Of a DNA stretch of 64,000 bases, positions 3,473 through 60,942 are shown piece after piece (positions within the stretch are counted from its first letter, which is position 1; each line of letters opens with the position of its first letter). This DNA is from Mycolicibacter engbaekii (GTDB taxonomy: Bacteria; Actinomycetota; Actinomycetes; Mycobacteriales; Mycobacteriaceae). Where the stretch lies: assembly GCF_002101585.1 (NCBI RefSeq), contig NZ_LQOT01000024.1, forward strand, positions 62,001 to 126,000, read 5' to 3'. A model generated the notes under the pieces. The model was given only the letters and a program-made list of their open reading frames with translations. It was not told where the DNA came from and made no database searches. The translations under genes were made by a program, and so were the position numbers.

Positions 3473-4978
3473 TCAGCTGCTGGCGGTCAGGCCGCGGGTG
3501 GCCGGACCTTCCAGCAGGGTGCCGTCGGGGGCGAAGCGCGAGCCGTGCAGCGGGCACTCCCAGGCCAAGTCGGCGTCGTTCCAGGTGACGATGCCGCCCA
3601 GATGCGGGCAGACCGGTGAGAGGCGGTGCTCCACGCCGTCCACCCGGCACTGGGCCTGCAGGTGCCACGGGGGACCGCTGACCACACCGGCGTCCTTTCC
3701 CAAGAAGTGCTGGCCGATGTGTGTCGTCGGCGTGATCCAGCCCTTGGCCAGATTGAGGCCGACAGCGAAATTGGCCGCCGCGGCCTCGGGCAGCCCGCGG
3801 AGCTCACGAGGACTCCAACTGGCGAACGCCCGGTCCCACTCGGGTCGCTCGCCCAGCAGCCGGCCCGACAACGCCAGCGCTGCGGCTGCCCCGTTGGTCA
3901 TGCCCCATTTGTTGAAACCCGTCGCCACGTACGTGGTGTCGTTTCCGGGCAGGATGGGACCGACGTAGGGCAGCTCGTCGACGGGGGCGTAGTCCTGCGC
4001 CGACCACAGGTGCGTGCGGGTCGCGCCCGGGTAATGCCGGACTGCCCACGACTCCAGTTCGGCGAGCGCATCGATCGGGTACTTCTCGCGGCCGACGGTG
4101 TGCCCGGCCCCACCGACCAGCAGGCGCCGCGAGCCGTTGACCGGTGCATAGCGCAGCGATCGGGTCGGCGAATCGGTGGAGATCATCATGGGCCGGGTGA
4201 TCTCGCCGGGCACGTCGAACGCCATGCAGTAGGACCGGCTGGGTTTGACCCGGGCGAAGTACCCGCCGCGGTCCAGGATCGGGATGCCGGTGGCCAATAT
4301 CAGTTGGTTGGCATGCACCTCGGTCTGGCCGCGCGGGCCGTTCACGTCCAGGTGAAGGCCGCGGTGTTTGCTTGAAACACGTTGCACACGTGCATGTTCC
4401 AGAAGTTGTCCGCCATGTGCGAGCAGTTCGGCGCGCAGAGCGTCCAGGAAGGGCATCGGGTCGAACTGTGCCTGCTCGGCCAGTCGCACGCCGCCGTGGT
4501 AGCTGAACGGTACGTCGGCGTGCGGCTCCCACGTCACCGGCAGCCCCAGCGCGCGGCAGGCCTCGAACTCCGCGCGCGCGGCCGCCACGCCGCGCTCGGA
4601 CTGCGCGAAGCTGTAGGCGTCCTCACGCTGGACCGCGACCCCGGCCGCCGCGCAGAACGCCAGCAGCCAGTCCTGTCCGGCGCGGTTGCCCTCCAGGTAC
4701 TCCCCGGCCAGGCGTTTGCCCTGTTTGGCCCAGATCGCCGACAGTTGCGTGCCCTGCAGCAGACTGATCTTGGCCGTGGTGTTGCCGGTCGCGCAGGAAC
4801 CGACGGTCCGGGCCTCCAGCACCAGCACGTCGCGTCCGGCCCGCGCCAGCAGCACCGCGGTCATCAGACCGGTGATACCGGCGCCTGCCACCACCACGTC
4901 GGCGAAGCCGGGCAGGTCTTCGGCGGTACCCGAGTGCGGTGAGGTCGCGATCCGGTCGGCGAGCCACAAGGACGTCAT
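3473..4978 (-). CDS. FAD-dependent oxidoreductase with C-terminal Rieske domain
   Basis: 501 residues. An N-terminal dinucleotide fold (VVVAGAGITGLMTAVLLARAG, ~28-48) starts a DAO-type FAD domain filling ~25-400. A complete Rieske 2Fe-2S site lies at the C-terminus: C457-P-H459 and C475-P-L-H478. The protein probably oxidises an amine or amino acid, passing electrons through the cluster; the substrate cannot be told. No signal peptide. It has its own SigF-type promoter (4988-5012) back-to-back with that of the hemerythrin gene. Convergent with sigF. Confidence 0.88.
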   Translation of the reverse strand: MTSLWLADRIATSPHSGTAEDLPGFADVVVAGAGITGLMTAVLLARAGRDVLVLEARTVGSCATGNTTAKISLLQGTQLSAIWAKQGKRLAGEYLEGNRAGQDWLLAFCAAAGVAVQREDAYSFAQSERGVAAARAEFEACRALGLPVTWEPHADVPFSYHGGVRLAEQAQFDPMPFLDALRAELLAHGGQLLEHARVQRVSSKHRGLHLDVNGPRGQTEVHANQLILATGIPILDRGGYFARVKPSRSYCMAFDVPGEITRPMMISTDSPTRSLRYAPVNGSRRLLVGGAGHTVGREKYPIDALAELESWAVRHYPGATRTHLWSAQDYAPVDELPYVGPILPGNDTTYVATGFNKWGMTNGAAAALALSGRLLGERPEWDRAFASWSPRELRGLPEAAAANFAVGLNLAKGWITPTTHIGQHFLGKDAGVVSGPPWHLQAQCRVDGVEHRLSPVCPHLGGIVTWNDADLAWECPLHGSRFAPDGTLLEGPATRGLTASS

Positions 4979-15973: not shown

Positions 15974-16399
15974 TCAGGGCCGCGGGCCCAGGTTCTGCAC
16001 GCCCGCCAAAGCCTCGGCCAGCGACGACGACGTCGGCAAGGCCTGCGTCGGGTCGCAGATGCGCAACAGGCGCGCGACCGCCGCGCCGGGCACCGTCGTG
16101 CAGTGGACGCTGGTCTTGGCGCATCGTTCGGCGATAGTCCGTAACGCCGAAAAGCCTGCGACACCAAAAAAATCCAGGTTGTCGAGGTCCAGAACCAACC
16201 ATTCGCAGTAGCGCGCGCATTGCTGCACGTAGTCGGCCAGCTGGCCGGCGTTGGCGGCGTCGAGTTCGCCGCCCACGGTGACCACCGCACCGCAGCGTCC
16301 CCAGCGGGTGACGGAGCGCGCGGTGCGGCTTTCCCAGGTATCGGAAGGGGGAGGGGCGTGCGGCGGCGATGCCGAGCCGACGGTTTTCAAAGCGGGCAT
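15974..16399 (-). CDS. STAS domain protein A (anti-anti-sigma type)
   Basis: 141 residues with one STAS domain (~35-135). Strand-helix core: AVVTVGGELDAANAG, WLVLDLDNLDFFGVAGFSALR. STAS antagonists normally release SigF from RsbW when unphosphorylated. At the usual phospho-Ser position (DSSG in SpoIIAA) this protein has GVAG, so control by that Ser is unlikely. A paralog lies at 32766-33203. The ATG at 16399 has GATGGAG upstream, as in the paralog. The two genes also share a 16-bp element upstream. Its partner is not known; RsbW of this window is the nearest candidate. Confidence 0.82.
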   Translation of the reverse strand: MPALKTVGSASPPHAPPPSDTWESRTARSVTRWGRCGAVVTVGGELDAANAGQLADYVQQCARYCEWLVLDLDNLDFFGVAGFSALRTIAERCAKTSVHCTTVPGAAVARLLRICDPTQALPTSSSLAEALAGVQNLGPRP

Positions 16400-19707: not shown

Positions 19708-20511
19708 TCAGATCCGGTTCTCCGGGCCGAGCACAGCCCACACCGTTTTGCCGTTCGGGGCGGGGTTGCTACCCCATGCGCGACACAGGGCGCCGACAAC
19801 CGCCAGGCCGGAGGCCCGATCGACTCCTCCGGTGGCGGATTCGTGGCGGATCGCGGGGACGTCACTGGTGTCGTGAACCGCGATGGTGATCGTGGAGCTG
19901 GCGCTTTCGAGTGCTACCACCGCGGGGCTGTCGGTGTGCCGCAGCACGTTTTCCACCAGCACGTCGACGATCACCTGCGCTGCCGGTATCAGGTGTTCCT
20001 GCGACCAGTTGGTCAGCCATTCGCCGACGAAGTCGCGGGAACCGCGCAGGCTGCTCACGCGATGAGGCAACACGGTATGGGCGCGTCGGCGTGGAGGCGA
20101 ATTTTCCGCCAGCGAGGCCACCGCGGATTCGACGTCGGCGTGCACCGGGAGGTAGCGCGTCACTCCGGCGTTCGAGATCGCAGCGGCCACGTCCGGTTGC
20201 GGACAGACCAGCAGGATCGGTATAGCGGGCCAGGTGCTGACATGCCATCGGGCACTCGTGAAAACCGACCACGCCGACGACGCCGGGACGTCAAGCCGAC
20301 TGACGTCGATCACCACTGCGGGCGGCTCGGCGAGTGCCGCCCTAATCACACAGTCGCGCAATTCGAGGTAGGTACTGCTGTCCAAGGTGCCGGCTGCGGT
20401 CAGCAGACTGGCCTCGGCGCCGGTCGCCACCGTCACCGTCAGCTGACTTGACGCGCTAGTCAGGGTCGTCCCCCTGCGGGCAGACCATCTTGGCCCGCGA
20501 CATCGTCTCAA
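19708..20511 (-). CDS. STAS-HATPase fusion protein
   Basis: 267 residues. The N-terminal half is STAS-like (ALAEPPAVVIDVSRLDVPASSAW, ~58-80; SSA in place of SSG). The C-terminal half is an RsbW-type HATPase (N-box VLVENVLRHTDSP, ~184-196; G-box region weak; SGLAVVGAL, ~238-246). It thus joins a sigma-antagonist and an anti-sigma kinase fold in one chain. It could be a self-contained partner-switching regulator. The start is uncertain: the frame opens at a TTG (20511), with GTG codons 25 and 27 residues further in. A possible SigF promoter is at 20592-20617. Confidence 0.72.
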   Translation of the reverse strand: MRRCRGPRWSARRGTTLTSASSQLTVTVATGAEASLLTAAGTLDSSTYLELRDCVIRAALAEPPAVVIDVSRLDVPASSAWSVFTSARWHVSTWPAIPILLVCPQPDVAAAISNAGVTRYLPVHADVESAVASLAENSPPRRRAHTVLPHRVSSLRGSRDFVGEWLTNWSQEHLIPAAQVIVDVLVENVLRHTDSPAVVALESASSTITIAVHDTSDVPAIRHESATGGVDRASGLAVVGALCRAWGSNPAPNGKTVWAVLGPENRI

Positions 20512-32765: not shown

Positions 32766-33203
32766 TCAGGGCACCAGGCGAAGCGGGCGGCCCGACCGCT
32801 GAACGTCGGCCAAGGCATCCGCCAGCGAGGTAACCAGCGGAAGACGCGACTGCGGGTCACAGATTCGCAGCAGGTTCGACAGGGCGGGGCTTGTGACCAC
32901 TTTGAATTGCGTCTGCGCGCTTTCGCACCGCGCGCTGATCGATTGCAGCGCCGTAAAACCGGCGGTGCCAATGAATGTCAGCTCAGCCAAGTCGACTACC
33001 AGCCACTCGCAGCATTCGGCGCAACGTTGCGCGTAGTCGGCGAACGGGCCGGCGTTGACGGCGTCGACCTCTCCGTTGACGGCGACGACGGCACCCGTGC
33101 GGCCCCAATGGACGGTGAACCGGGCGGTATGACTCCGCCAGACCTGGGTGGCTTCTGTGGCGGGCGCGGCGAAAGCGTTCTGCGACAAATCGATGGTGGT
33201 CAT
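32766..33203 (-). CDS. STAS domain protein B
   Basis: 145 residues, one STAS domain: AVVAVNGEVDAVNAG, LVVDLAELTFIGTAGFTALQS. The usual phospho-Ser position is Ala (GTAG) as in protein A at 15974. It starts MTTIDLSQN; Thr at residue 2 is the position that PknD phosphorylates in the M. tuberculosis STAS protein Rv0516c (from memory), so a Thr in the tail may be used for control instead. The ATG at 33203 has GATGGAG upstream; the frame opens at 33290. Paralog of protein A, with a shared upstream element. Confidence 0.82.
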   Translation of the reverse strand: MTTIDLSQNAFAAPATEATQVWRSHTARFTVHWGRTGAVVAVNGEVDAVNAGPFADYAQRCAECCEWLVVDLAELTFIGTAGFTALQSISARCESAQTQFKVVTSPALSNLLRICDPQSRLPLVTSLADALADVQRSGRPLRLVP

Positions 33204-50890: not shown

Positions 50891-51006
50891 GCTGTCAGTG
50901 CACGTCGGTGGGCTGCGCGGGCTGGGGTATCTGATTAGGCTTGACCACATGTCGCTGTCTGCGGCCTACGGTGTCGCCCGGGCATCCGGAGAATGGGTCT
51001 GATCCG

Positions 51007-53106
51007 ATGTCGCAAACATCTGCCGGTGCGTCGAGCATCTACCTCGCCGCTGCCGAAGGCGGCTCCGGCAAGTCCGTGCTCGCGCTGGGCCTGCTGCACC
51101 TGTTGGCGGCCTCCTCGGCCCGCGTCGGGGTGTTCCGCCCGGTGGTGCGGTCGCTCGACGAGCCCGACGGGCAACTCGAACTGCTGCTCGAGCATGCCAC
51201 CGCCGCCATCGAGGACCACAGTTCCTGCCGCGGCGTGACCTATCAGCAGGTCTTCGCCGACCGGGAGGCGGCGCTGGGCGAGATCGTCTCGCGATTCCAC
51301 GATGTCGCCCGGCACTGCGACACCGTGCTGGTGGTCGGCAGCGACTACACCGACGTCGTCAACCCGAGCGAGTTGAGCTTCAACGCCCGGGTCGCGGTGA
51401 ATCTCGGCGCGCCGCTGGTGCTTGCGGTCAACGGCTACAACCGCGACGCCCAGTCTGTCGCCGATATCACCGCACGCTGCCTGGCCGAAGTGGCTGCGGT
51501 ACACGCTCATCCGGCGGCGGTGATCGCCAACCGCTGCGATCCCGACCGGCTCTGCGATGTCAGCCAGGCGATCTCGCAGCAGCTGCCCGACATCGATGTG
51601 CCGGTGTTCGCAGTTCCCGAGGTGGCGCTGTTGTCGGCCCCGACGATGGCCGAACTCTGCTCGGCGCTGGACGGCACCGTCTACAGCGGCGACCCGGAGT
51701 TGCTTCGCCGGGAGGCGCTCAGCGTCATGGTCGGTGGCATGACCGCGGAGAACATTCTCGACAGGCTGTCCGAGGGCCAGGTGGTGATCGTGCCGGCCGA
51801 CCGGTCCGACGTGCTGCTGGCTTTGGTGAACGCCCATGAAGCGCAGGGATTTCCGTCACTGGCGGGGATCATTCTCAACGGCGGCCTGTTGCCTCATCCC
51901 GCTATCGACAAGCTGGTCAAGGGTCTTCGGCCGACACTGCCGCTGATCGCCACCAGCCACCGCACCTACGACACCGCCGAAAAGGTGTCGCATACCGGTT
52001 CGCGGATCACCGTGGGCGCATTGCGCAAGATCGACACCGCTATCGCGCTGATCGCCAAGCACATCGACGGTGCCGAGCTGGCCGAGCGGATCCGGGTGCC
52101 GGCGTCGAACGTCATCACGCCGCAGATGTTCGAATACCGGCTGCTGGAACGAGCCCGGGCAGACCGCCGGCACATTGTGCTTCCGGAGGCGACTGACGAC
52201 CGGATTCTGCTGGCCGCCGGCCGGTTGCTGTCGCGCGGCATCGTCGACCTGACGTTGCTCGGCGTCGAAGGTGCGGTGCGCCGCCGCGGCGCCGAGCTGG
52301 GGGTGGACCTCGACGCCGCGCGCGTGATCGACCCGGAGACCTCGCAGTTGCGGGACGCGTTCGGCGCCGAGTACACCCGGCTGCGGTCGCACAGGGGCAT
52401 GACCGAAGACCGTGCCCGCGAGATCATGCGCGACATCTCCTATTTCGGCACCATGATGGTGCACCAGGGTATTGCCGACGGGATGGTGTCGGGGGCTGCG
52501 CACACCACCGCGCACACGATCCGGCCGGCGTTCGAGATCATCCGGACTGCGCCCGGGGTGTCGACGGTGTCCAGTGTGTTCCTGATGTGTCTGTCGGACC
52601 GGGTGCTGGCCTACGGCGACTGTGCGGTGGTTCCCGATCCCACCGTCGAGCAGCTGGCCGACATCGCGATCTCCTCGGCGGCCACCGCGGCGGCGTTCGG
52701 CATCGAACCCCGGGTGGCGCTGCTGTCCTACTCGACCGGCGAGTCCGGCTCGGGTGCCGGCGTGGACAAGGTCCGTGCCGCAACGCAATTGGTGCACCAG
52801 CGTCGCCCCGACCTGCTCGCCGACGGTCCCATCCAGTACGACGCCGCGGTCGACGCGGGGGTGGCGGCAGCCAAGAGACCGGACTCGCCGGTCGCCGGTC
52901 GGGCCACCGTGCTGGTGTTCCCCGACCTCAACACCGGCAACAACACCTACAAGGCGGTGCAGCGCAGTGCCGGTGCCGTCGCGATCGGCCCGGTGCTGCA
53001 GGGCCTGGCCAAACCCGTCAACGACCTGTCCCGGGGAGCGCTGGTCGACGACATCGTCTACACGGTGGCCATCACCGCGATCCAGGCGCAGGGAGCAGCC
53101 CAGTGA
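51007..53106 (+). CDS. pta: Phosphate acetyltransferase Pta
   Basis: 699 residues. An N-terminal ATPase-like regulatory domain ([16 protein letters not shown]-loop, ~12-27; DRTGG-type region), a DRTGG-like middle (~230-330) and the C-terminal PTA domain (~365-699, with [28 protein letters not shown] and [13 protein letters not shown]). It interconverts acetyl-CoA and acetyl phosphate. ATG 51007; the frame opens at 50941. Its stop overlaps the ackA GTG. Confidence 0.95.
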
Positions 53107-54257
53107 CAGCAAGCGCGCCCGGTCTGGTGCTGGTGCTCAACTCCGGCTCGTCGTCGATCAAGTTCCAGTTGGTCGACCCGGAGGCCGGGACCGCGCTGCT
53201 GTCCGGCCTGGTGGAGCAGATCGGCGAGGCGAACAGCCCCGTCGCGGACCACGCCGCCGGACTGCGGCTGATCCACCGAAAACTCACCGACTCCGGCATC
53301 GACCTGGCGGCCGTCCGCGCTGTCGGGCATCGCGTGGTGCACGGGGGCCAGCTGTTCTCCCGCCCGACCCTGATCACCGACGAGGTGGTGGCCGAAGTCG
53401 CGCGGCTGGCGGAGCTGGCGCCCCTGCACAATCCCGCCAACGTGATCGGGATCGAAGTGGCCCGCAAGGACTTCCCCGACGTTCCGCACGTCGCGGTGTT
53501 CGACACCGGCTTCTTCCATTCCTTGCCGGCCGCGGCCGCCGCCTACGCCATAGATCACGACCTGGCCACCCGATTGGGCATCCGCCGCTACGGGTTCCAC
53601 GGCACCTCACACGAGTACGTGGCCGGTGAGGTCGCGGTGCTGCTCGACCGTGACCCCGCCGAGCTGAACCTCATCGTCGCGCATCTCGGTAACGGGGCGT
53701 CGGCGTCGGCGATCCGGGGCGGAGTGGCAGTCGAGACGTCGATGGGGCTGACGCCGCTGGAGGGTCTGGTGATGGGCACCCGCAGCGGCGACATCGATCC
53801 CGGGGTGCTGTTCCATCTGCACCGCACGGCCGGGCTCGGCGTCGACGAACTCGACGAGTTGCTCAACCGCCGCTCCGGGCTCAAGGGCCTCTGCGGGGTC
53901 AACGACTTCCGGGCGCTGCTGGAGCAGCGTGCGGTCGGAGGCGAGCCGGGCGAGGCCGCCAGGCTGGCCTACGACGTCTATGTTCACCGCCTTCGCAAGT
54001 ACGTCGGCGCGTATCTGGCCGTGCTGGGCAGAGTCGACGCCATCGCCTTCACCGCCGGGGTGGGGGAGAACGCGCCGAGCGTGCGCGAAGACGCGTTGGC
54101 CGGTCTGGAGGGCCTGGGCATCGTGGTGGACCCCGAACGCAACCGCGCCGGCAAGGGCGCCCGCATCATCTCCGCGCCGGGATCGCCCACCACCGTGCTG
54201 GTGGTCCCCACCAATGAGGAGCTGGCGATCGCCCGGGCCGCCTGGAAGTTCGTCTGA
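53103..54257 (+). CDS. ackA: Acetate kinase AckA
   Basis: 384 residues. [14 protein letters not shown] at the N-terminus, [12 protein letters not shown] (~160-171), HLGNGAS, and [14 protein letters not shown] near the C-terminus are all present. It makes ATP and acetate from acetyl phosphate. GTG start overlaps pta, so pta-ackA are coupled, as in M. tuberculosis Rv0408-Rv0409. Confidence 0.95.
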
Positions 54258-54340: not shown

Positions 54341-55453
54341 GTGAAATGGGGCCGATCGGCGTCGCTGACCGCGCTGCTCGTTGTTGGCGCACTGGCGGTT
54401 TCGTCCTGCGGCGGTCGCGCGGGCGAGCCGGTGCCGGACGAGGCCCCGACGGCGGCCGTGGACTGCGCCGGCAAGCAGGAGCTGCGCGCCGGCGGCCCGA
54501 GCGCTCAGGCGAAGGCGATCCAGCAGTTCGTCTACGCCTACACCGCGGCGTGCCCGGGCCGGACGCTCAATTACCGCGCCAGCGGCGCAGCCGCGGCGGT
54601 CGACGACTTCATCGACAACGACCTGGACCTGGCCGGCTCCGAGGCGGCGCTGGATCCCGCCAAGACGCAGCCGGAGCGGGCGGCGGAGCGGTGCGGCTCG
54701 CCGGCCTGGCACCTGCCGCTGGTGTTCGACCCGATCGCCGTCACCTATCACATCCCGGGCGTCACCGGCCTGATCCTGGACGCGCCCACCCTGGCGAAGA
54801 TCTTCAGCGGCACGATCGGCAGTTGGGACAACCCCGCGATCAAGGCCCTCAACCCGGGTGCGGCGCTGCCCACGCTGCCCATCCACGTGGTGTACCGCAG
54901 CGACCGGTCGCCGAGCACCGCCGCCTTCCAGAAGTATCTCGAGGTCGCCTCCGACGGCGGGTGGTTCGGCGGCGGCGAGACCTTCAACGGCGGGGTCGGT
55001 GAAGCGGTCGTCGGCAACAACGGCGCCGCGGCGGCACTGCAGGCCACCGACGGCTCCATCACCTACAGCGAATGGTCGTTCGCGGTCGGCAAGCAGCTGC
55101 CGATGGCGCAGCTCATCACCGCCGGCGCGGCGCCGGTGGCGGTCTCCGTCGAGTCGGTCGGCAAGGCCCTCGCCGGGGCGAGGTTCGTCGCCGACGGCAA
55201 TCCGCACAACGACCTGGTGCTCGACCCGGCGTCGCTGTACAGACCCGCCGACCACGGCGCCTACCCGATCGTGACGGCCATCTATCAGATCGTCTGCTCG
55301 AAATACCCCGACGCCGCCACAGGTACGGCCGTCAAGGCGTTCCTGCAGGCCGCGATCGGTCCTGGCCAGGACGGCCTGGACCAGTACGGCTTCGTTCCCG
55401 TACCGGAACCCCTCACATCCCGGCTTCTGGCGTCGGCGAACGCGATCTCGTAG
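54341..55453 (+). CDS. PstS2-like phosphate-binding lipoprotein with altered binding residues
   Basis: 370 residues from the GTG at 54341. A signal peptide with lipobox VSSC precedes a periplasmic-binding fold similar to PstS2. Several usual phosphate contacts differ: AGSE where AGSD is normal, RSDRSPST where RSDxSGTT is normal, and GPSAQ where GSTAQ is normal. Ligand binding may be weak or changed. It is followed after 84 bp by the PknD-like kinase, the same order as pstS2-pknD in M. tuberculosis (Rv0932c-Rv0931c). It has no PstCAB genes nearby and follows ackA on the same strand. Confidence 0.82.
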   Translation: MKWGRSASLTALLVVGALAVSSCGGRAGEPVPDEAPTAAVDCAGKQELRAGGPSAQAKAIQQFVYAYTAACPGRTLNYRASGAAAAVDDFIDNDLDLAGSEAALDPAKTQPERAAERCGSPAWHLPLVFDPIAVTYHIPGVTGLILDAPTLAKIFSGTIGSWDNPAIKALNPGAALPTLPIHVVYRSDRSPSTAAFQKYLEVASDGGWFGGGETFNGGVGEAVVGNNGAAAALQATDGSITYSEWSFAVGKQLPMAQLITAGAAPVAVSVESVGKALAGARFVADGNPHNDLVLDPASLYRPADHGAYPIVTAIYQIVCSKYPDAATGTAVKAFLQAAIGPGQDGLDQYGFVPVPEPLTSRLLASANAIS

Positions 55454-55537
55454 GCGTTTGCGGCGTCGGTCCCGGTTAGTCTGGTAGCCAATCTTTCGCC
55501 GCAGTGCGCGGCACTGTGCTCGAAGGGAGCGCCGTCG

Positions 55538-57505
55538 GTGAACAGTCCCGAGCCGGGTTCGCGAACCGGATCGCGATTCGGCCCGTACCAATTGGGCCGG
55601 CTGCTGGGCCAGGGAGTGGTAGGCGAGGCCTACCGGGCCGAAGACACCCGCAACCACGAAAACGTGGCGCTCACACTGATCTGCGACTCGCTCTCCTCCG
55701 ACGCCGCCTTTCGCAGCCGGCTGGAGGATGAGGCCGAGGCCGCCGCTCAGCTGACCGAGCCGCACGCCGTGCCGATCCGCGCCTACGGCGAGATCGAGGG
55801 CGTCCTCTATCTGGAAACCGGCCTGATCGACGGCACCGACCTGGCCACCGTCCTGGCCGAGGACGGCCCGCTGAGCCCGCCGCGAGCGGTGGCCGTCATA
55901 CGCCAGATCGCCGCGGCACTCGACGCGGCACACGATGCCTACGTCGTGCACCGCGACGTCCGGCCCGAGAACATTCTGCTCACCTGCGACGACCTGGCGT
56001 ATCTGACCGACTTCGGTGTCGCGGCGGCCATCGCCGAACCGGGCGTGCGGGCCGACCCGGCGACTGGCGCCATCACCCACATGGCGCCCGAGCGCCTGGC
56101 CGGTGAGCCGGTCACGCACCTCGCCGACATCTACTCGCTGGCCGCGGTGTTGGCGCAGGCCCTGACCGGGGTGCCCCCGTTCGCGGCGGCCACCGTCGAC
56201 GAGGCGATCGAAGAGCGCCGCACCGCCGAGCCTCCGCGGCCGAGCGCACTGCGCCCCGGGCGGGTCCCGGCGGCCATCGATGCGGTGCTGGCGCGCGGGC
56301 TGGCGCCCAAACCCGAGGAGCGCTACAGCAGCGCCGGGGAGTTCGCCGCAGCCGCTTACCAGGCCCTGACCGAGCCGGAACGCCACCAGGTCGCCCGGAT
56401 CCTGCGCCGTGGCGAACCCGCGCTGCACCTGGCCGCAGGCCTCGAACCCGAGCCCCGGTTCAGCCGCACCGAACCGGTCCGGGCGCCGGGGACGCCGCCG
56501 GAGCTGCGATTCGGTGGTGCCGTTGACGTCGGCCTGGGCGGTCCGGCCCCGGTGCCGTTCCCGATGCCGCAACTGCTGCACAGCGACCAAGCCCCGGTGC
56601 TGCCCACCCCGTCGCGGCGCTGGCAGCCGCCGCGCAAGCCGGTGCTGGTGGCGGCCGCGGCGATCGTCGCGGTCATGGTGGTCGGCGGCGTCGGGCAGCT
56701 GCTGTCCCGGCCCTCGTCGGCGACACCGGTGGCTGCGCCCCCGCAGGACGTGCTGCCCTTCACCGGACTCGACTACCGGCTATCACCGGGCGGGGTGGCA
56801 CTGGACGGCGACGGCAACGTCTACGTCACCAGTGACGGCATGCACGGGCGGGTGGTGCGCCTGGCCGCCGATTCGCATGCATCCACGGTGGTGCCCTACA
56901 GCGACCTGTACCAGCCGCGCGGTGTGGTGGTCGACGACACCGGCACCGTGTACTTCTCCGACGTCAACAGTCGCGTGGTCAAAGTGGACGCCGGCTCCGA
57001 TGTTCACACGGTGCTGCCGTTCATCGGCCTCGACGATCCCGACGGGGTGGCGGTGGACTCGGCCGGCAACGTCTACGTCGCCGACCGCGGCAATGATGTG
57101 GTTCTGCGACTCGACGCCGACACCAACGTTTCGACCACGGTGCCGTTCGTCGGCCTCGACAGGCCCGACGGGGTGGCGGTGGACTCCGCCGGCAACGTCT
57201 ATGTCACCGACACCGGCAACGACCGGGTGCTCAAGCTGCCGGCCGCCACCAACGAACAGGTGGTGTTGCCCTTTGCCGGGATCGTCGCGCCGTGGGGCAT
57301 CGCGGTCGACGATGCCGGCGACATCTACGTCACCGAACACAACCGCAACCGGGTGGTGAAACTGGCGGCCGGCGCGGCGATCCCGGAGGTGCTGCCGTTC
57401 ACCGGGCTCAACGCGCCGCTGGATGTCGCGGTCGACCGGCACGGCCACGTCTATGTCGCCGACCGCGGCAACGACCGCGTCGTCAAGGTGAACGGCAACC
57501 GCTGA
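55538..57505 (+). CDS. PknD-like receptor kinase lacking the ATP-binding lysine
   Basis: 655 residues. The N-terminal kinase domain (~15-275) has a glycine loop LGQGVVGEAY, HRDVRPEN (138-145) and TDFG (157-160). The beta-3 site reads VALTLI, with Thr46 in place of the invariant Lys (VALKLI in PknD of M. tuberculosis). The activation loop (~163-182) is shortened and poor in Thr. A linker, a transmembrane segment (~369-389) and six NHL-type beta-propeller repeats (~405-655) follow, all complete. It may be a pseudokinase that keeps an extracellular sensor. GTG start, AAGGGAGC upstream. Confidence 0.88.
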   Translation: MNSPEPGSRTGSRFGPYQLGRLLGQGVVGEAYRAEDTRNHENVALTLICDSLSSDAAFRSRLEDEAEAAAQLTEPHAVPIRAYGEIEGVLYLETGLIDGTDLATVLAEDGPLSPPRAVAVIRQIAAALDAAHDAYVVHRDVRPENILLTCDDLAYLTDFGVAAAIAEPGVRADPATGAITHMAPERLAGEPVTHLADIYSLAAVLAQALTGVPPFAAATVDEAIEERRTAEPPRPSALRPGRVPAAIDAVLARGLAPKPEERYSSAGEFAAAAYQALTEPERHQVARILRRGEPALHLAAGLEPEPRFSRTEPVRAPGTPPELRFGGAVDVGLGGPAPVPFPMPQLLHSDQAPVLPTPSRRWQPPRKPVLVAAAAIVAVMVVGGVGQLLSRPSSATPVAAPPQDVLPFTGLDYRLSPGGVALDGDGNVYVTSDGMHGRVVRLAADSHASTVVPYSDLYQPRGVVVDDTGTVYFSDVNSRVVKVDAGSDVHTVLPFIGLDDPDGVAVDSAGNVYVADRGNDVVLRLDADTNVSTTVPFVGLDRPDGVAVDSAGNVYVTDTGNDRVLKLPAATNEQVVLPFAGIVAPWGIAVDDAGDIYVTEHNRNRVVKLAAGAAIPEVLPFTGLNAPLDVAVDRHGHVYVADRGNDRVVKVNGNR

Positions 57506-57566: not shown

Positions 57567-58298
57567 GTGGACGGTAGCGTCGTGGGCCCCGAAGCGGGCA
57601 TCACTTACCCGGTGACCGACGCTCCGGCGGCGACCCTTGAGCACCACGATCATGATCACGCGGGGCACCAGCACCGCGTTCCCGTCGTTCACGACGCGGG
57701 TTGGCGCCGTGCCGCGGTCTGGGCCCGGCGGCTGGCCTGGATAAGCCTGATCCTGGTGGGCGTCGAAGGCGTGCTGGGCCTGTGGCAGGGCCTGGCGGCC
57801 GGTTCGATCGCCCTGACGGGCTGGGCGCTGGGCGCCATTCCCGAGGCGCTGGCCGGGGCCGTGGTGATCTGGCGGTTCACCGGCGCCCGCACGCTGTCCG
57901 ACACCGCTGAACGCCGCGCCCAGATCGGTGTGGCGATCTCGTTCTGGATCAACGCGCCCTACATCGCCGCGGAATCCGTGCACCACTTCTTCGGCGATCA
58001 GCGCAGTGAAGGCAGCGTCATCGGTATTGCGATCACCGCCGCGGCCGCGCTGGTGATGCCGATCCTGGGCCGAGCCCAGCGACGGCTCGGCGTCCGGCTG
58101 GGCTCGGCGGCGACGGTCGGCGAGGGAGTGCAGAACTATCTGTGTGCGGTCCAGGCGGCTGCGGTTCTGGTGGGGCTGACCCTTACCGCGCAGTGGGCCG
58201 GGGCCTGGTGGCTGGACCCGCTGATCGGTCTGGGGGTGGCCGGCGTTTCGGTGTGGCAGGGCTGCCGCTCCTGGCGCGGCGAGGGTTGCGGCTGCTGA
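57567..58298 (+). CDS. CDF-like membrane protein with His-rich N-terminus
   Basis: 243 residues. A His-rich stretch (HHDHDHAGHQH, ~26-36) could bind metal. Five or six hydrophobic segments follow, with WINAPYIAAESVHHFF and LDPLIGLGVAGVSVWQ resembling cation-diffusion-facilitator transporters. It probably moves a divalent metal and lies next to the ctpC/pacL metal genes. It corresponds in place to Rv3271c. GTG start. Convergent with ctpC, separated by a hairpin. Confidence 0.72.
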   Translation: MDGSVVGPEAGITYPVTDAPAATLEHHDHDHAGHQHRVPVVHDAGWRRAAVWARRLAWISLILVGVEGVLGLWQGLAAGSIALTGWALGAIPEALAGAVVIWRFTGARTLSDTAERRAQIGVAISFWINAPYIAAESVHHFFGDQRSEGSVIGIAITAAAALVMPILGRAQRRLGVRLGSAATVGEGVQNYLCAVQAAAVLVGLTLTAQWAGAWWLDPLIGLGVAGVSVWQGCRSWRGEGCGC

Positions 58299-58343
58299 GC
58301 GCTGCCGAGACGCCCGCGATTGCTGCGCTGTGTGAAACGTGAA

Positions 58344-58394
58344 GTCCCGACTGCCCTGGAGCTGGTGGTGGTGCTCGACAGGAACAGTCGGGAC
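58344..58394. terminator. Bidirectional terminator between CDF-like gene and ctpC
   Basis: GTCCCGACTG (58344-58353) pairs exactly with CAGTCGGGAC (58385-58394), loop 31 nt, between converging genes. Confidence 0.55.
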
Positions 58395-58403
58395 CCGGAC
58401 AGA

Positions 58404-60629
58404 TTACGGCACTGCGGGGGCTGATGCCAACGGGCCCGAGTCCAGCCGGTAGCGGATCAACCGCGAGCTGTTGGCGACGACGGCCACCGACGACGCGTTG
58501 TGCAGCAGCGCCGCCAGCACCGGGGACAGCGCCCCGCCGGCGCCGATCAACAGTCCGGCGGCGTTGACCGCGATCGACATGCCGTAGTTCTGCCTGATCA
58601 CCTCGACGGCCCGTGCGCCCAGGTCCCGCACGTCGAGCAGCCGGCGCAGGTCGTCGTTGGCCAGGGCGACGTCGGCGGTCTCGACGGCGACGTCGGTACC
58701 GGCCAGGCCCATCGCGATTCCCATGTCGGCCGCAGCCAGGGCCGGTGCATCGTTGACGCCGTCGCCGATCATGCTCACCACGTAGCCCTCGTCCTGAAGC
58801 TCGCGGACCACCTGCAGCTTGTCCTCGGGCAGCACCTCGGCCCGCCATTCGGCGATGCCGAGTTCGTCCGCCACCGCGGCCGCGGTCTCCGGATGATCGC
58901 CGGTGAGCATGATGATGCGACGAATGCCTTTGGCGCGCAGCGCTTCGAGCACCTCGCGGGCTTCCGGGCGCACCTCGTCCCGCAGACTGATCAACCCGAC
59001 CAGCACGCCGTCGACCGCGAGCAGCAGCGGGGTCTCGGCCTGGGCGCGCAGTTTGGTGACCCAGGCCGCCGCCTTCTTGGAGATGCGGACCTTCTCCGCG
59101 CGCAGCAGGTTGGGACTGCCCAGCAGCAACGTGCGACCGTCGGCCCAGGTGCGGATGCCCAGGCCCACCAGAACTTCGCACTCCTCATGCGGCGGGATGC
59201 TGATGCGGCGTTCCTCGGTGGAGCGGATCACCGCTTCGGCCAGCGGGTGCCGGGAGTGCAGTTCCGAGCTGGCGGCGTAGGCGAGTACCTGTTCGGGTTG
59301 CCAATCAGGGTGAATCGCAACGATATTGGTCACCACCGGCCGGCCCACCGTCAGGGTTCCGGTTTTGTCGAACACGATCGCGTCCACGCGGCCGGCCTGC
59401 TCGAGGTGAGAACCGCCCTTGATCAGGATGCCGCGCCGTGCGCCGTTGCCGATCGCCGCGCTGATCGCCGTCGGCGTGGACAGACCCACCGCGCAGGGGC
59501 AGGCGATCAGCAGCATGGTCATGGCCCGGCGGACATCGCCGGTGAACACCAGGGTGAGCGCTGAGAGGATGAACGACGCCGGTACGAAGCGCCGGGAGAA
59601 GTTCTCGCCCACGGTCTGGATCGGCGCCCGGTCGTGCTGCGCCTCCTCGACCCGGCTGATGATGCGGCCGATCACGGTCTGGCTTCCCACCGCGGTGGCG
59701 CGGACCACCAGGCGGCCGCGCACCACCACCGAACCGGCATGCACGGTTGCGCCGGTGATCACGCTGACCGGCAGGGTCTCCCCGGTGATCGCGGACTGGT
59801 CGACGATGGCGTCGCCGTCGACGACCTCGCCGTCGACCGGGATCGCCACGTGGTCGTGGATGATGATTTCGTCACCGATCTGCAGCGAGTCGATCGGCAC
59901 CTGAACCTCGGTGTATTCCGCGTTTTCCGGGGGCCCTTGGCCCACCCGGACCCAGGCGGTGTCCTGGTTGCCGCGCAGCAGATCGGAGATGGCGCGCCGG
60001 GTGCGGCGCAGCGTCAGATCCTGCAGGTACTCACCGATGTTGAGCAGCCACAGCACGGTGAGCGCGACCACGTTCTCCCGAAGAACCAGGCTGGCCACGG
60101 TCGCGGCGGTCACCAGCGCGTCGGTGCCGGCCCGGCCGGAGCGGATCGAGCGCAGCGCCCCCCGCAGGAAGGGATAACCCATGAAGACGGTGGCGCCGGT
60201 CGCCACGAGCTGGCCGCTGGGGCCCAGCAGGGGCGGCCGCGCGAAGACGTAGCGGCGCATCCCCAGCAGTGCCAGTGCGGCGCCGCCGATCACCATGCGC
60301 AGCACGTCGGTGTTACGGATGTCGGCCGAGCGAGGAGTGCGGGTGGGGATCAGCTCCGCGGAGACGGTGGCCGCCGACGCGATCGCGGCGAGTATCTCCG
60401 CGGGGTCGCTGCGCTGGGGGGAGTACCAGACCACCACGGCGCCGGTGCGCGGGTAGCCATGCGCGGTCCGCACCCCGTGGACCCTGCCGGCGGCCTCCTC
60501 GGCGGCCACCGCGCGGCGCGAATCGCCGCGCACCCACGGGGCCTGCACCCGCATGCGGCCCGCCGCGTCGGAAACGACGATCAACTCCGCGTCGCCGGGC
60601 GTGATCTGTGCAGCGCCGCTGCCTGTCAT
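58404..60629 (-). CDS. ctpC: P1-type metal ATPase CtpC
   Basis: 741 residues from the ATG at 60629 (GGGGAG upstream). Transmembrane CPC motif LLIACPCAVGLSTP, phosphorylation site DKTGTLT, the HP motif in SRHPLAEAV and GDGVNDAPAL are all present. CtpC exports manganese or zinc (Rv3270). No N-terminal HMA Cys motif. It is followed upstream by the pacL1-like gene, which lies 31 bp before it and should be co-transcribed. Confidence 0.95.
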   Translation of the reverse strand: MTGSGAAQITPGDAELIVVSDAAGRMRVQAPWVRGDSRRAVAAEEAAGRVHGVRTAHGYPRTGAVVVWYSPQRSDPAEILAAIASAATVSAELIPTRTPRSADIRNTDVLRMVIGGAALALLGMRRYVFARPPLLGPSGQLVATGATVFMGYPFLRGALRSIRSGRAGTDALVTAATVASLVLRENVVALTVLWLLNIGEYLQDLTLRRTRRAISDLLRGNQDTAWVRVGQGPPENAEYTEVQVPIDSLQIGDEIIIHDHVAIPVDGEVVDGDAIVDQSAITGETLPVSVITGATVHAGSVVVRGRLVVRATAVGSQTVIGRIISRVEEAQHDRAPIQTVGENFSRRFVPASFILSALTLVFTGDVRRAMTMLLIACPCAVGLSTPTAISAAIGNGARRGILIKGGSHLEQAGRVDAIVFDKTGTLTVGRPVVTNIVAIHPDWQPEQVLAYAASSELHSRHPLAEAVIRSTEERRISIPPHEECEVLVGLGIRTWADGRTLLLGSPNLLRAEKVRISKKAAAWVTKLRAQAETPLLLAVDGVLVGLISLRDEVRPEAREVLEALRAKGIRRIIMLTGDHPETAAAVADELGIAEWRAEVLPEDKLQVVRELQDEGYVVSMIGDGVNDAPALAAADMGIAMGLAGTDVAVETADVALANDDLRRLLDVRDLGARAVEVIRQNYGMSIAVNAAGLLIGAGGALSPVLAALLHNASSVAVVANSSRLIRYRLDSGPLASAPAVP

Positions 60630-60660
60630 CGCTGCGCTCCCCATCGTCGGCGCCGGACGG

Positions 60661-60942
60661 TCAGTGGTCGTGGTCGTGCGCGACGGCTGCCGCCGGCGGG
60701 GTGGCCTCCTCGCCGATGCGTTCGCGGGCCTCGGCGACCACATCGGCCACCTTCAGCCGCGCCGACTCCGCGACCTCCTCGGCCCGCCGCGTTCCACGCA
60801 GGCCCCATTCGGTGGCGGTGACCGCGGCCTGGTGCAGCGGGGCCTTGTTCAGTGCCCGGCGTGCCACCTCGTACGCGCTCACGCCGACCAGCCCGGTGAA
60901 CACCGTCGACGCCGCTTTTGCCAGCAATCCCTGCACCGCCAT
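60661..60942 (-). CDS. pacL1: PacL1-like small membrane metal-binding partner (DUF1490)
   Basis: 93 residues. An N-terminal hydrophobic stretch (AASTVFTGLVGVSAYEVA, ~10-27) anchors it in the membrane, a helix follows, and the C-terminus AHDHDH binds metal. PacL proteins deliver Zn/Mn to CtpC-type ATPases and stabilise them (Rv3269). First gene of the ctpC operon; AGGAGAGGCTC precedes the ATG. Confidence 0.88.
   Translation of the reverse strand: MAVQGLLAKAASTVFTGLVGVSAYEVARRALNKAPLHQAAVTATEWGLRGTRRAEEVAESARLKVADVVAEARERIGEEATPPAAAVAHDHDH

What the first reader, a model, noticed from the sequence alone, without database searches (positions are those of the whole stretch)
54341..57505. PstS2-PknD-like pair in which both proteins have lost key residues
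Seen: the kinase has Thr46 where the ATP-binding Lys should be (VALTLI), HRDVRPEN in place of HRDxKPEN and a short activation loop, but intact propeller and membrane segment. The PstS-like lipoprotein has AGSE for AGSD and SPS for the SGT phosphate loop. Known: M. tuberculosis pstS2-pknD is a neighbour pair and PknD acts on SigF regulation through a STAS protein. Inference: a sensor-decoy or pseudokinase that signals by binding rather than phosphorylation.
Basis: partly seen in the sequence, partly recalled or inferred. Interest (0 to 1): 0.75.

Follow-up and report, generated by a model that had tools for sequence, protein, structure and literature searches.

The report
Dead-kinase twin of receptor PknD
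In one branch of mycobacteria a copy of the membrane sensor PknD, encoded beside a phosphate-binding-like lipoprotein, has lost the lysine that kinases use to hold ATP, and relatives lost it again and again while selection kept the protein whole, so it likely passes signals by touching partners rather than by phosphorylating them.

Summary
The window encodes a PstS-like lipoprotein (54341-55453) and a 655-aa PknD-like receptor (55538-57505) with Thr46 at the ATP lysine, HRDVRPEN, an activation loop one residue short, and an intact propeller and membrane helix. The lipoprotein's phosphate pocket is altered at five positions. Thr46 recurs in 96% and 89% identical relatives, so it is no sequencing error. 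The gene belongs to a paralogous clade ("A") near ackA, apart from the canonical pst-cluster pknD. All 22 orthologs lack the canonical activation-loop threonines; the ATP lysine was lost at least 7 times on the best tree (T, N, R, M). 21 of 22 are full length, and kinase-domain omega is about 0.10 (0.13-0.20 for the Thr46 pair), so the gene is not decaying. Of 21 genomes searched, 17 also carry an intact PknD; the window's has none. Clade-wide charge changes sit at N-lobe positions aligned with the kinase dimer face. Best reading: a maintained pseudokinase receptor that signals by binding. Activity, ATP and phosphate binding and partners are untested; HRD Asp is never lost, and 14 of 22 orthologs keep all five catalytic residues. 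New variant of a known kind.

The parts
54341..55453 (+). PstS-like lipoprotein (P0002, 370 aa), lipobox LAVSSC; PstS fold with altered phosphate pocket
   Evidence: TIGR00975 266 bits over cut-off 205; PF12849; best solved relative PstS3 4lvq; pocket table
54641..54643 (+). codon of Glu101, at the position of E. coli PstS Asp56
   Evidence: alignments; E. coli numbering recalled
54911..54916 (+). codons of Pro191-Ser192, at the positions of E. coli PstS Gly140-Thr141
   Evidence: E. coli numbering recalled
55538..57505 (+). PknD-like receptor (P0001, 655 aa): kinase domain 15-288, linker, membrane helix 373-389, six-bladed NHL propeller about 405-653
   Evidence: 1rwi propeller, 64% identity
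55673..55675 (+). codon ACA of Thr46 in place of the ATP-binding Lys
55961..55963 (+). codon CGG of Arg142 (HRDVRPEN) in place of the catalytic-loop Lys
53070..54257 (+). ackA, upstream landmark of the locus (pta before it at 50941-53106)
   Evidence: PF00871; pta NCBIfam; ackA lies 0.07-11 kb upstream of the pair on the same contig and strand in 20 of 21 genomes, on another contig in G362
57567..58298 (+). cation-efflux-like gene, downstream landmark; in 6 relatives an intact pknD (copy T) lies between the pseudokinase and this gene
   Evidence: PF01545

Best explanation
The window encodes a PknD-type membrane receptor that has lost its ATP-binding lysine, next to a PstS-like lipoprotein with an altered phosphate site, and it is likely a pseudokinase that would relay an envelope signal by protein contact. 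Shown from sequence: it belongs to a paralogous clade near ackA; all 22 orthologs lack the canonical activation-loop threonines and single catalytic residues were lost many times; reading frames and purifying selection are kept; fixed charge changes cover N-lobe positions that align with the dimer face of PknB. Inferred: the propeller, with the lipoprotein, senses an extracellular state; this changes how the folded kinase domain associates through its altered N-lobe face; the bound partner (ancestrally the intact sister kinase T encoded next to it, here more likely another Ser/Thr kinase or a kinase substrate) is thereby held, titrated or switched. Because the lipoprotein's pocket is also altered, the signal in this lineage is probably no longer free phosphate.
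For: Motifs: ATP Lys lost in 5 of 22 locus-confirmed orthologs (T, T, N, R, R), any of five catalytic residues lost in 8 of 22; of the 34 other PknD copies in that alignment 1 has a loss. Database: any of five lost in 17 of 39 clade-A proteins against 1 of 80 canonical ones. Fewest changes on the best 65-row tree: ATP Lys 7, HRDxK Lys 6, Asn 3, DFG Asp 3. Clade A is one branch, SH-aLRT 100. Kinase-domain omega 0.10 against 0.055-0.072 in intact copies; 0.13 (YN00) and 0.20 (NG86) for the pair G000-G073, both with Thr46. Fold confidently predicted, nearest kinase structure PknE 2h34. Kept locus: the downstream metal-transport genes adjoin in 20 of 21 relatives (not in the short stretch fetched for G086) and ackA lies upstream in 20 of 21 genomes. 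Of 20 fixed differences 15 fall in the kinase domain and 3 in the propeller, among them R41E and D82A, 22 of 22 against 34 of 34. No other pknD found in G000 or G073. Precedent: MviN, a mycobacterial pseudokinase domain with VALT at the same motif, is reported to recruit FhaA once phosphorylated by PknB and to form back-to-back dimers (PMC12599244).
Against: HRD Asp is kept in 22 of 22 orthologs and 39 of 39 database relatives, and alpha-C Glu in 22 of 22 (37 of 39), more than a purely dead domain would need. 17 of 22 orthologs keep the ATP Lys and 14 of 22 keep all five residues, so the clade is not uniformly dead. 10 of 22, the window protein included, have another Thr (PAT) in the loop that could be a phosphosite. 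In the Thr46 pair the kinase domain evolves faster than the propeller (0.13 against 0.05). No partner was identified. The dimer-face reading rests on alignment and recalled PknB numbering, not on a complex structure. Lipoprotein and receptor were not shown to interact.
Confidence: 0.6

Rival explanations
1. The extracellular half does the work: propeller and lipoprotein have an envelope role (binding, adhesion, solute capture) and the kinase domain is kept only as a folded anchor.
For: Propeller and membrane helix intact. In the Thr46 pair the propeller is tighter (omega 0.05 YN00) than the kinase domain (0.13). In the species without copy T that were tested the propeller of A is more constrained (0.103) than in species with T (0.191).
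Against: Over the subtrees kinase-domain omega (0.099 and 0.103) is no higher than that of the propeller (0.103 and 0.191). 15 of 20 fixed clade differences fall in the kinase domain, a sign of a changed role there rather than passive keeping.
Confidence: 0.2
2. It is still an active kinase that uses unconventional catalysis or very low activity.
For: HRD Asp, DFG Asp, Asn145 and alpha-C Glu are all present in the window protein, and HRD Asp was not lost in any clade member examined. A Thr remains in the loop (PAT).
Against: No lysine in the glycine-loop strand could replace Lys46 as in WNK kinases (sequence; WNK rule recalled). The 89% relative P0004 with the same Thr has also lost DFG Asp, and P0020-P0022 have Met at the Lys site plus NFG. 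The canonical activation-loop threonines are gone and the P+1 Thr is Ala here.
Confidence: 0.12
3. The pair is decaying after loss of function and the missing residues are drift.
For: Catalytic residues are lost many times; the lipoprotein's omega is three times higher in the tested species without T (0.152 against 0.052); canonical pknD and a 7.6-kb pst block are absent from this genome.
Against: Full-length reading frames in 21 of 22 orthologs (the 22nd, G086, lies in two pieces on two contigs), omega 0.10 in the kinase domain, 0.13-0.20 in the pair lacking the lysine, and a kept locus.
Confidence: 0.08

Closest known systems
PknD with PstS2 (canonical receptor kinase pair of the mycobacterial pst cluster)
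   Same: Kinase - linker - one membrane helix - six-bladed NHL propeller (1rwi, 64% identity over the propeller); PstS-type lipoprotein gene directly upstream; about 51% identical to copy B of G130
   Different: Other locus (near ackA, not pst), separate clade, ATP Lys and HRDxK Lys lost, canonical activation-loop threonines lost, N-lobe positions aligned with the dimer face changed, phosphate pocket changed
MviN pseudokinase domain (ActPs3 family)
   Same: Mycobacterial membrane protein with a pseudokinase domain; VALT at the VAIK motif; N-lobe dimer face under family-specific constraint (PMC12599244)
   Different: ActPs3 members have lost all three motifs and MviN is a peptidoglycan-synthesis protein; here HRD and DFG are intact and the outer half is a propeller
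PstS3 / PstS phosphate-binding proteins
   Same: Fold and length; PstS3 4lvq is the best structure match
   Different: Five of eight pocket positions differ (Thr10, Ser38, Asp56, Gly140, Thr141 in E. coli numbering, recalled) and no transporter genes adjoin in the window
StpK7 (NCBIfam NF052427)
   Same: Best NCBIfam hit of the kinase domain, 278 bits
   Different: Far below the cut-off of 900; matches the kinase domain only

Membership tests
PknD receptor kinases | Kinase domain, single membrane helix, six-bladed NHL propeller | tested here: met
PknD receptor kinases | Intact ATP Lys, catalytic Lys and canonical phosphorylatable activation loop | tested here: not met
   Thr46, Arg142, no LTQTG-type threonines; so it is filed as a PknD-derived pseudokinase, not as a PknD kinase
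PknD receptor kinases | Orthologous position in the pst cluster | tested here: not met
   separate clade near ackA; the pst cluster of G000 lacks the pknD block
Pseudokinases (sequence definition) | Loss of at least one of VAIK Lys, HRD Asp, DFG Asp | tested here: met
   VAIK Lys lost
Pseudokinases (sequence definition) | No phosphotransfer activity | not testable with these tools
   needs purified protein
Pseudokinases (sequence definition) | Kept as a folded, selected protein | tested here: met
   (fold predicted, not solved)
ActPs3 (MviN) pseudokinases | Degradation of all three motifs with activation-loop deletion | tested here: not met
   HRD and DFG intact; definition from PMC12599244
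PstS phosphate-binding proteins | Scores over the curated PstS cut-off | tested here: met
   TIGR00975 266.3 against 205
PstS phosphate-binding proteins | Conserved phosphate-contact residues | tested here: not met
PstS phosphate-binding proteins | Binds phosphate | not testable with these tools
   needs purified protein
PknD-STAS-SigF pathway | Acts on a STAS anti-anti-sigma factor | not tested
   6 STAS domains found in the genome; no link tested

The most novel reading that the evidence does not exclude
An ancestral three-gene receptor unit (PstS2-like lipoprotein, PknD copy A, PknD copy T) split its labour: T kept catalysis and phosphate sensing, while A became a regulatory receptor whose catalysis is dispensable and whose N-lobe face was re-specified. 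Where T was lost, A took over as a stand-alone pseudokinase receptor, its propeller tightening and the lipoprotein's phosphate pocket dissolving, and the ATP lysine was discarded again and again: a natural, replicated experiment in the birth of a bacterial pseudokinase receptor.
Probability: 0.3. Interest if true: 0.8.

Novelty: new variant of a known kind. Interest (0 to 1): 0.6.

Why it matters
Bacterial pseudokinases are described as largely unexplored experimentally (abstract of PMC12599244). Here one receptor family shows canonical kinases, motif-intact but loop-altered forms and forms without catalytic residues side by side, with at least seven losses of the ATP lysine inside one clade on the best tree, so the order of events and the retained function can be tested by comparison. 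It also suggests a kinase-independent route by which a PknD-type propeller could signal, in species in which no other PknD was found.

Tried and rejected
Sequencing error or pseudogene: rejected (same Thr in relatives, low omega). A relocated lysine of WNK type: none in the glycine-loop strand (sequence). A link between loss of the sister kinase T and decay of the phosphate pocket: suggestive only. 6 of 6 species with T keep the pocket and 13 of 16 without T have it altered (no whole-genome search for T was made in M. icosiumassiliensis, where only the locus was seen), but this rests on 1 or 2 independent pairs and cannot reach significance; and 3 of 9 outgroup PstS2 proteins have an altered pocket beside an intact kinase. 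Pocket change and kinase loss were not correlated either. IQ-TREE runs printed no omega in the files I read and were redone with bootstraps; those omegas are whole-subtree values, 20 bootstraps each, from subtrees of different depth, and 11 of the 16 species without T and 8 of the 14 B copies were used. The named genome scan gave 5 loci, 3 of them useful. Catalytic-loop flags printed were off by one residue and were recounted. The trait columns were not taken out of the tree (5 of 695). Of 33 canonical-type copies outside T and B in the alignment, 14 were carried into.
Full report
What is there. P0002 (54341-55453) is a PstS-type lipoprotein (TIGR00975 266 bits, cut-off 205) whose best solved relative is PstS3. 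P0001 (55538-57505) has a kinase domain, a linker, a membrane helix and a six-bladed NHL propeller; the best structural matches are the PknD propeller 1rwi (64% identity) and, for the kinase, PknE 2h34. Upstream lie pta and ackA; downstream a cation-efflux gene, a P-type ATPase and a DUF1490 gene. The genome (G000, 4.52 Mb, 79 contigs, completeness 100) is unnamed; named close relatives are mostly Mycolicibacter species.

The residues. Thr46 is coded ACA; Arg142 is coded CGG; DFG, HRD, Asn145 and alpha-C Glu65 are intact. The activation segment reads DFGVAAAIAEPGVRADPATGAITHMAPERL. In 20 of 22 orthologs it is one residue shorter, and in G291 and G350 seven shorter, than in the 34 canonical copies aligned, which nearly all have LTQTG-like threonines. 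The canonical threonines are absent in 22 of 22; 10 of 22, the window included, have a different Thr (PAT); the P+1 Thr is replaced in 7 of 22 (Ala here). The lipoprotein has Pro53-Ser54, Ala83, Glu101 and Ser190-Pro191-Ser192 where canonical PstS proteins have Ser-Thr, Ser, Asp and Ser-Gly-Thr. E. coli ligand numbering is recalled; the structure titles show only that Asp56 and Asp137 are studied residues.

Relatives. A search of 396 genomes of the genus (drawn from a larger group) found clade-A orthologs over the threshold in 20, all without stops inside (the window's genome included). M. icosiumassiliensis (L044) and G086 (two pieces on two contigs) make 22. The downstream metal-transport genes adjoin in 20 of 21 relatives (the stretch fetched for G086 does not reach them). 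ackA lies upstream on the same contig and strand, 0.07 to 11 kb away, in 20 of 21 genomes and on another contig in G362; so the pair is near ackA but in most genomes not in one operon with it. All 22 kinases form one branch (SH-aLRT 100), apart from 14 copies B, 6 copies T directly downstream of A, and 14 other copies. B is found in 14 of the 21 genomes searched and T in 6, one or both in 17; neither is found in G000, G073, G174 and G181. G073 is a single-contig genome, so absence there is unlikely to be a gap. B was seen among several pst genes in the 7 genomes for which longer stretches were fetched; in the other 7 only the adjoining pstS-type gene was seen (a second one in G347). In G022 the block at L060:2676-10317 (7.6 kb) holds pstS, pstC, pstA, pknD, pstS2 and a second pstB; in G000 the flanks meet with 50 bases between them, and pstS, pstC, pstA and pstB of the other set remain. 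The block missing relative to G078 is also 7.6 kb, relative to G150 4.7 kb. G000, G073 and G174 have two PstS relatives each at E 1e-20; the other five genomes searched have 4 to 6.

Repeated loss. Among the 22: ATP Lys lost in 5 (G000 T, G073 T, G371 N, G101 R, G362 R), HRDxK Lys in 3 (G000, G073, G174), catalytic Asn in 2 (G078, G320), DFG Asp and HRD Asp in 0; any in 8 of 22. Of the 34 other copies in that alignment 1 has a loss (G131, Thr at HRDxK). The wider alignment holds seven such copies with HRDVTPGN (G131, G048, G046, G061, G103, G118, G129), of which I carried only G131 on; all seven keep the ATP Lys. In the protein database (best 120 of 693 hits listed), of 39 clade-A proteins (the window's own included, fragment P0041 dropped) 11 lost the ATP Lys, 9 HRDxK, 3 Asn, 5 DFG Asp, 0 HRD Asp, any 17; of 80 canonical ones 1 lost any (P0083, HRG). 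Several of the 39 are the same species as loci above, so the two counts overlap. Thr46 with NFG occurs in P0004 (Mycobacterium sp. UM_Kg1, 89%), and Met with NFG in P0020-P0022 (P0021 labelled M. heraklionensis). On the best tree of 65 rows the fewest changes are 7 for the ATP Lys, 6 for HRDxK, 3 for Asn, 3 for DFG Asp, 0 for HRD Asp, and 10 for any; 19 of 61 inner branches are weak. P0039, at the base of the clade, and the canonical P0043 each list one contig of 6510 bases, consistent with an old A-T tandem outside the 22; I could not read that contig.

Selection. For G000 against G073 (both Thr46), dN/dS is 0.13 (YN00) or 0.20 (NG86) in the kinase domain, 0.05 or 0.09 in the propeller, and 0.15 or 0.27 in the lipoprotein. 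Subtree omegas (20 codon bootstraps; range in brackets): kinase domain A with T (6 species) 0.103 (0.082-0.123), A without T (11 of 16) 0.099 (0.074-0.125), T 0.055, B (8 of 14) 0.072; propeller A with T 0.191 (0.143-0.252), without T 0.103 (0.080-0.125), T 0.080, B 0.129; lipoprotein with T 0.052 (0.030-0.067), without T 0.152 (0.122-0.180), B partners 0.076. The kinase domain of A is thus constrained, with omega about 1.4 to 1.9 times that of intact copies.

N-lobe face. Twenty positions are fixed differently in A (at least 20 of 22) and elsewhere (at least 31 of 34): 15 in the kinase domain, 3 in the propeller, 2 between. N-lobe changes include E33R, R41E, R64D, H81R and D82A; R41, R64 and D82 are 34 of 34 in the other copies and 0 of 22 in A. 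Alignment with the genome's own PknB-like protein puts 39 and 82 opposite PknB residues 33 and 76 (numbering counted from its likely start), which I recall as back-to-back dimer contacts; [quoted passage not shown] PMC3601408 (passages) states that N-lobe dimerisation activates PknD allosterically. PMC2875399 (passages) reports that a conserved dimer-face His of PknJ, chosen by analogy with PknE and PknD, is needed for autophosphorylation, although the dimer band persisted; whether it is position 81 is inference. Whether the charge changes insulate A from intact PknD or favour pairing with it cannot be told without a complex structure.

Phosphate pocket and T. All 6 species with T keep the pocket; of 16 without T, 13 have it altered (intact: G181, G291, G350). 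All 14 B partners keep it; 3 of 9 other PstS2 partners do not, beside intact kinases. The link with T rests on one or two independent pairs.

Novelty. Searches for PknD with pseudokinase (11 papers, listing; passages of one of them, PMC3601408, read), PknD with pstS2 or paralog (listing only), bacterial pseudokinases (64 papers, 20 listed, one read in part), Mycolicibacter with PknD (0 papers) and kinome surveys (14 papers, 12 listed) showed me no report of a PknD-derived pseudokinase; only open-licence papers are held and most were seen as titles. The bacterial pseudokinase review does not contain the word PknD.

Noticed in passing
G000:C33:50989-52797 (L136), orthologs L137-L143: The StpK7-like kinase of this genus has HRG or HQG in place of HRD in 8 of 8 genomes searched (DFA instead of DFG in G000 and G073): a second conserved, probably catalytically dead protein annotated as a kinase.
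   Followed up: partly
L031, L034, L036, L038, L041, L042, L087: Seven PknD copies of other mycobacteria have HRDVTPGN and an R-Q-G-G glycine loop, a separate partial departure from the canonical kinase.
   Followed up: no
L026, L025, L067: PstS2 partners of intact PknD copies in G036, G060 and G083 have Gly at the Asp56 position and SANS in the phosphate loop.
   Followed up: no
L070:14244-14293 against L060:2676-10317: The pst cluster of the window's genome lacks a 7.6-kb block with pstS, pstC, pstA, pknD, pstS2 and a second pstB.
   Followed up: partly
L054:11824-13410, L098:10107-11369, L099:1601-3196 and 3619-4725, L100:1342-2442, L101:1745-3343 and 3775-4869: In 5 of the 6 species with copy T (not G331), oppositely transcribed PstS-like reading frames (365-533 aa) lie upstream of the lipoprotein gene; none was found at that threshold in the stretches of the 16 species without T (Pfam run on three of them).
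   Followed up: partly
window 16010-16288, 20122-20409, 32817-33089 (-): Three of the genome's six STAS domains lie in this window.
   Followed up: no
window 57567-60942: Cation-efflux gene, P-type ATPase and DUF1490 gene: a metal-transport cluster kept next to the receptor pair in 20 of 21 relatives.
   Followed up: no
G086:C199, C73, C111, C210: G086 has the receptor split over two contigs and kinase copies with the same scores as in G181 and G101: possibly a mixed or broken assembly.
   Followed up: no
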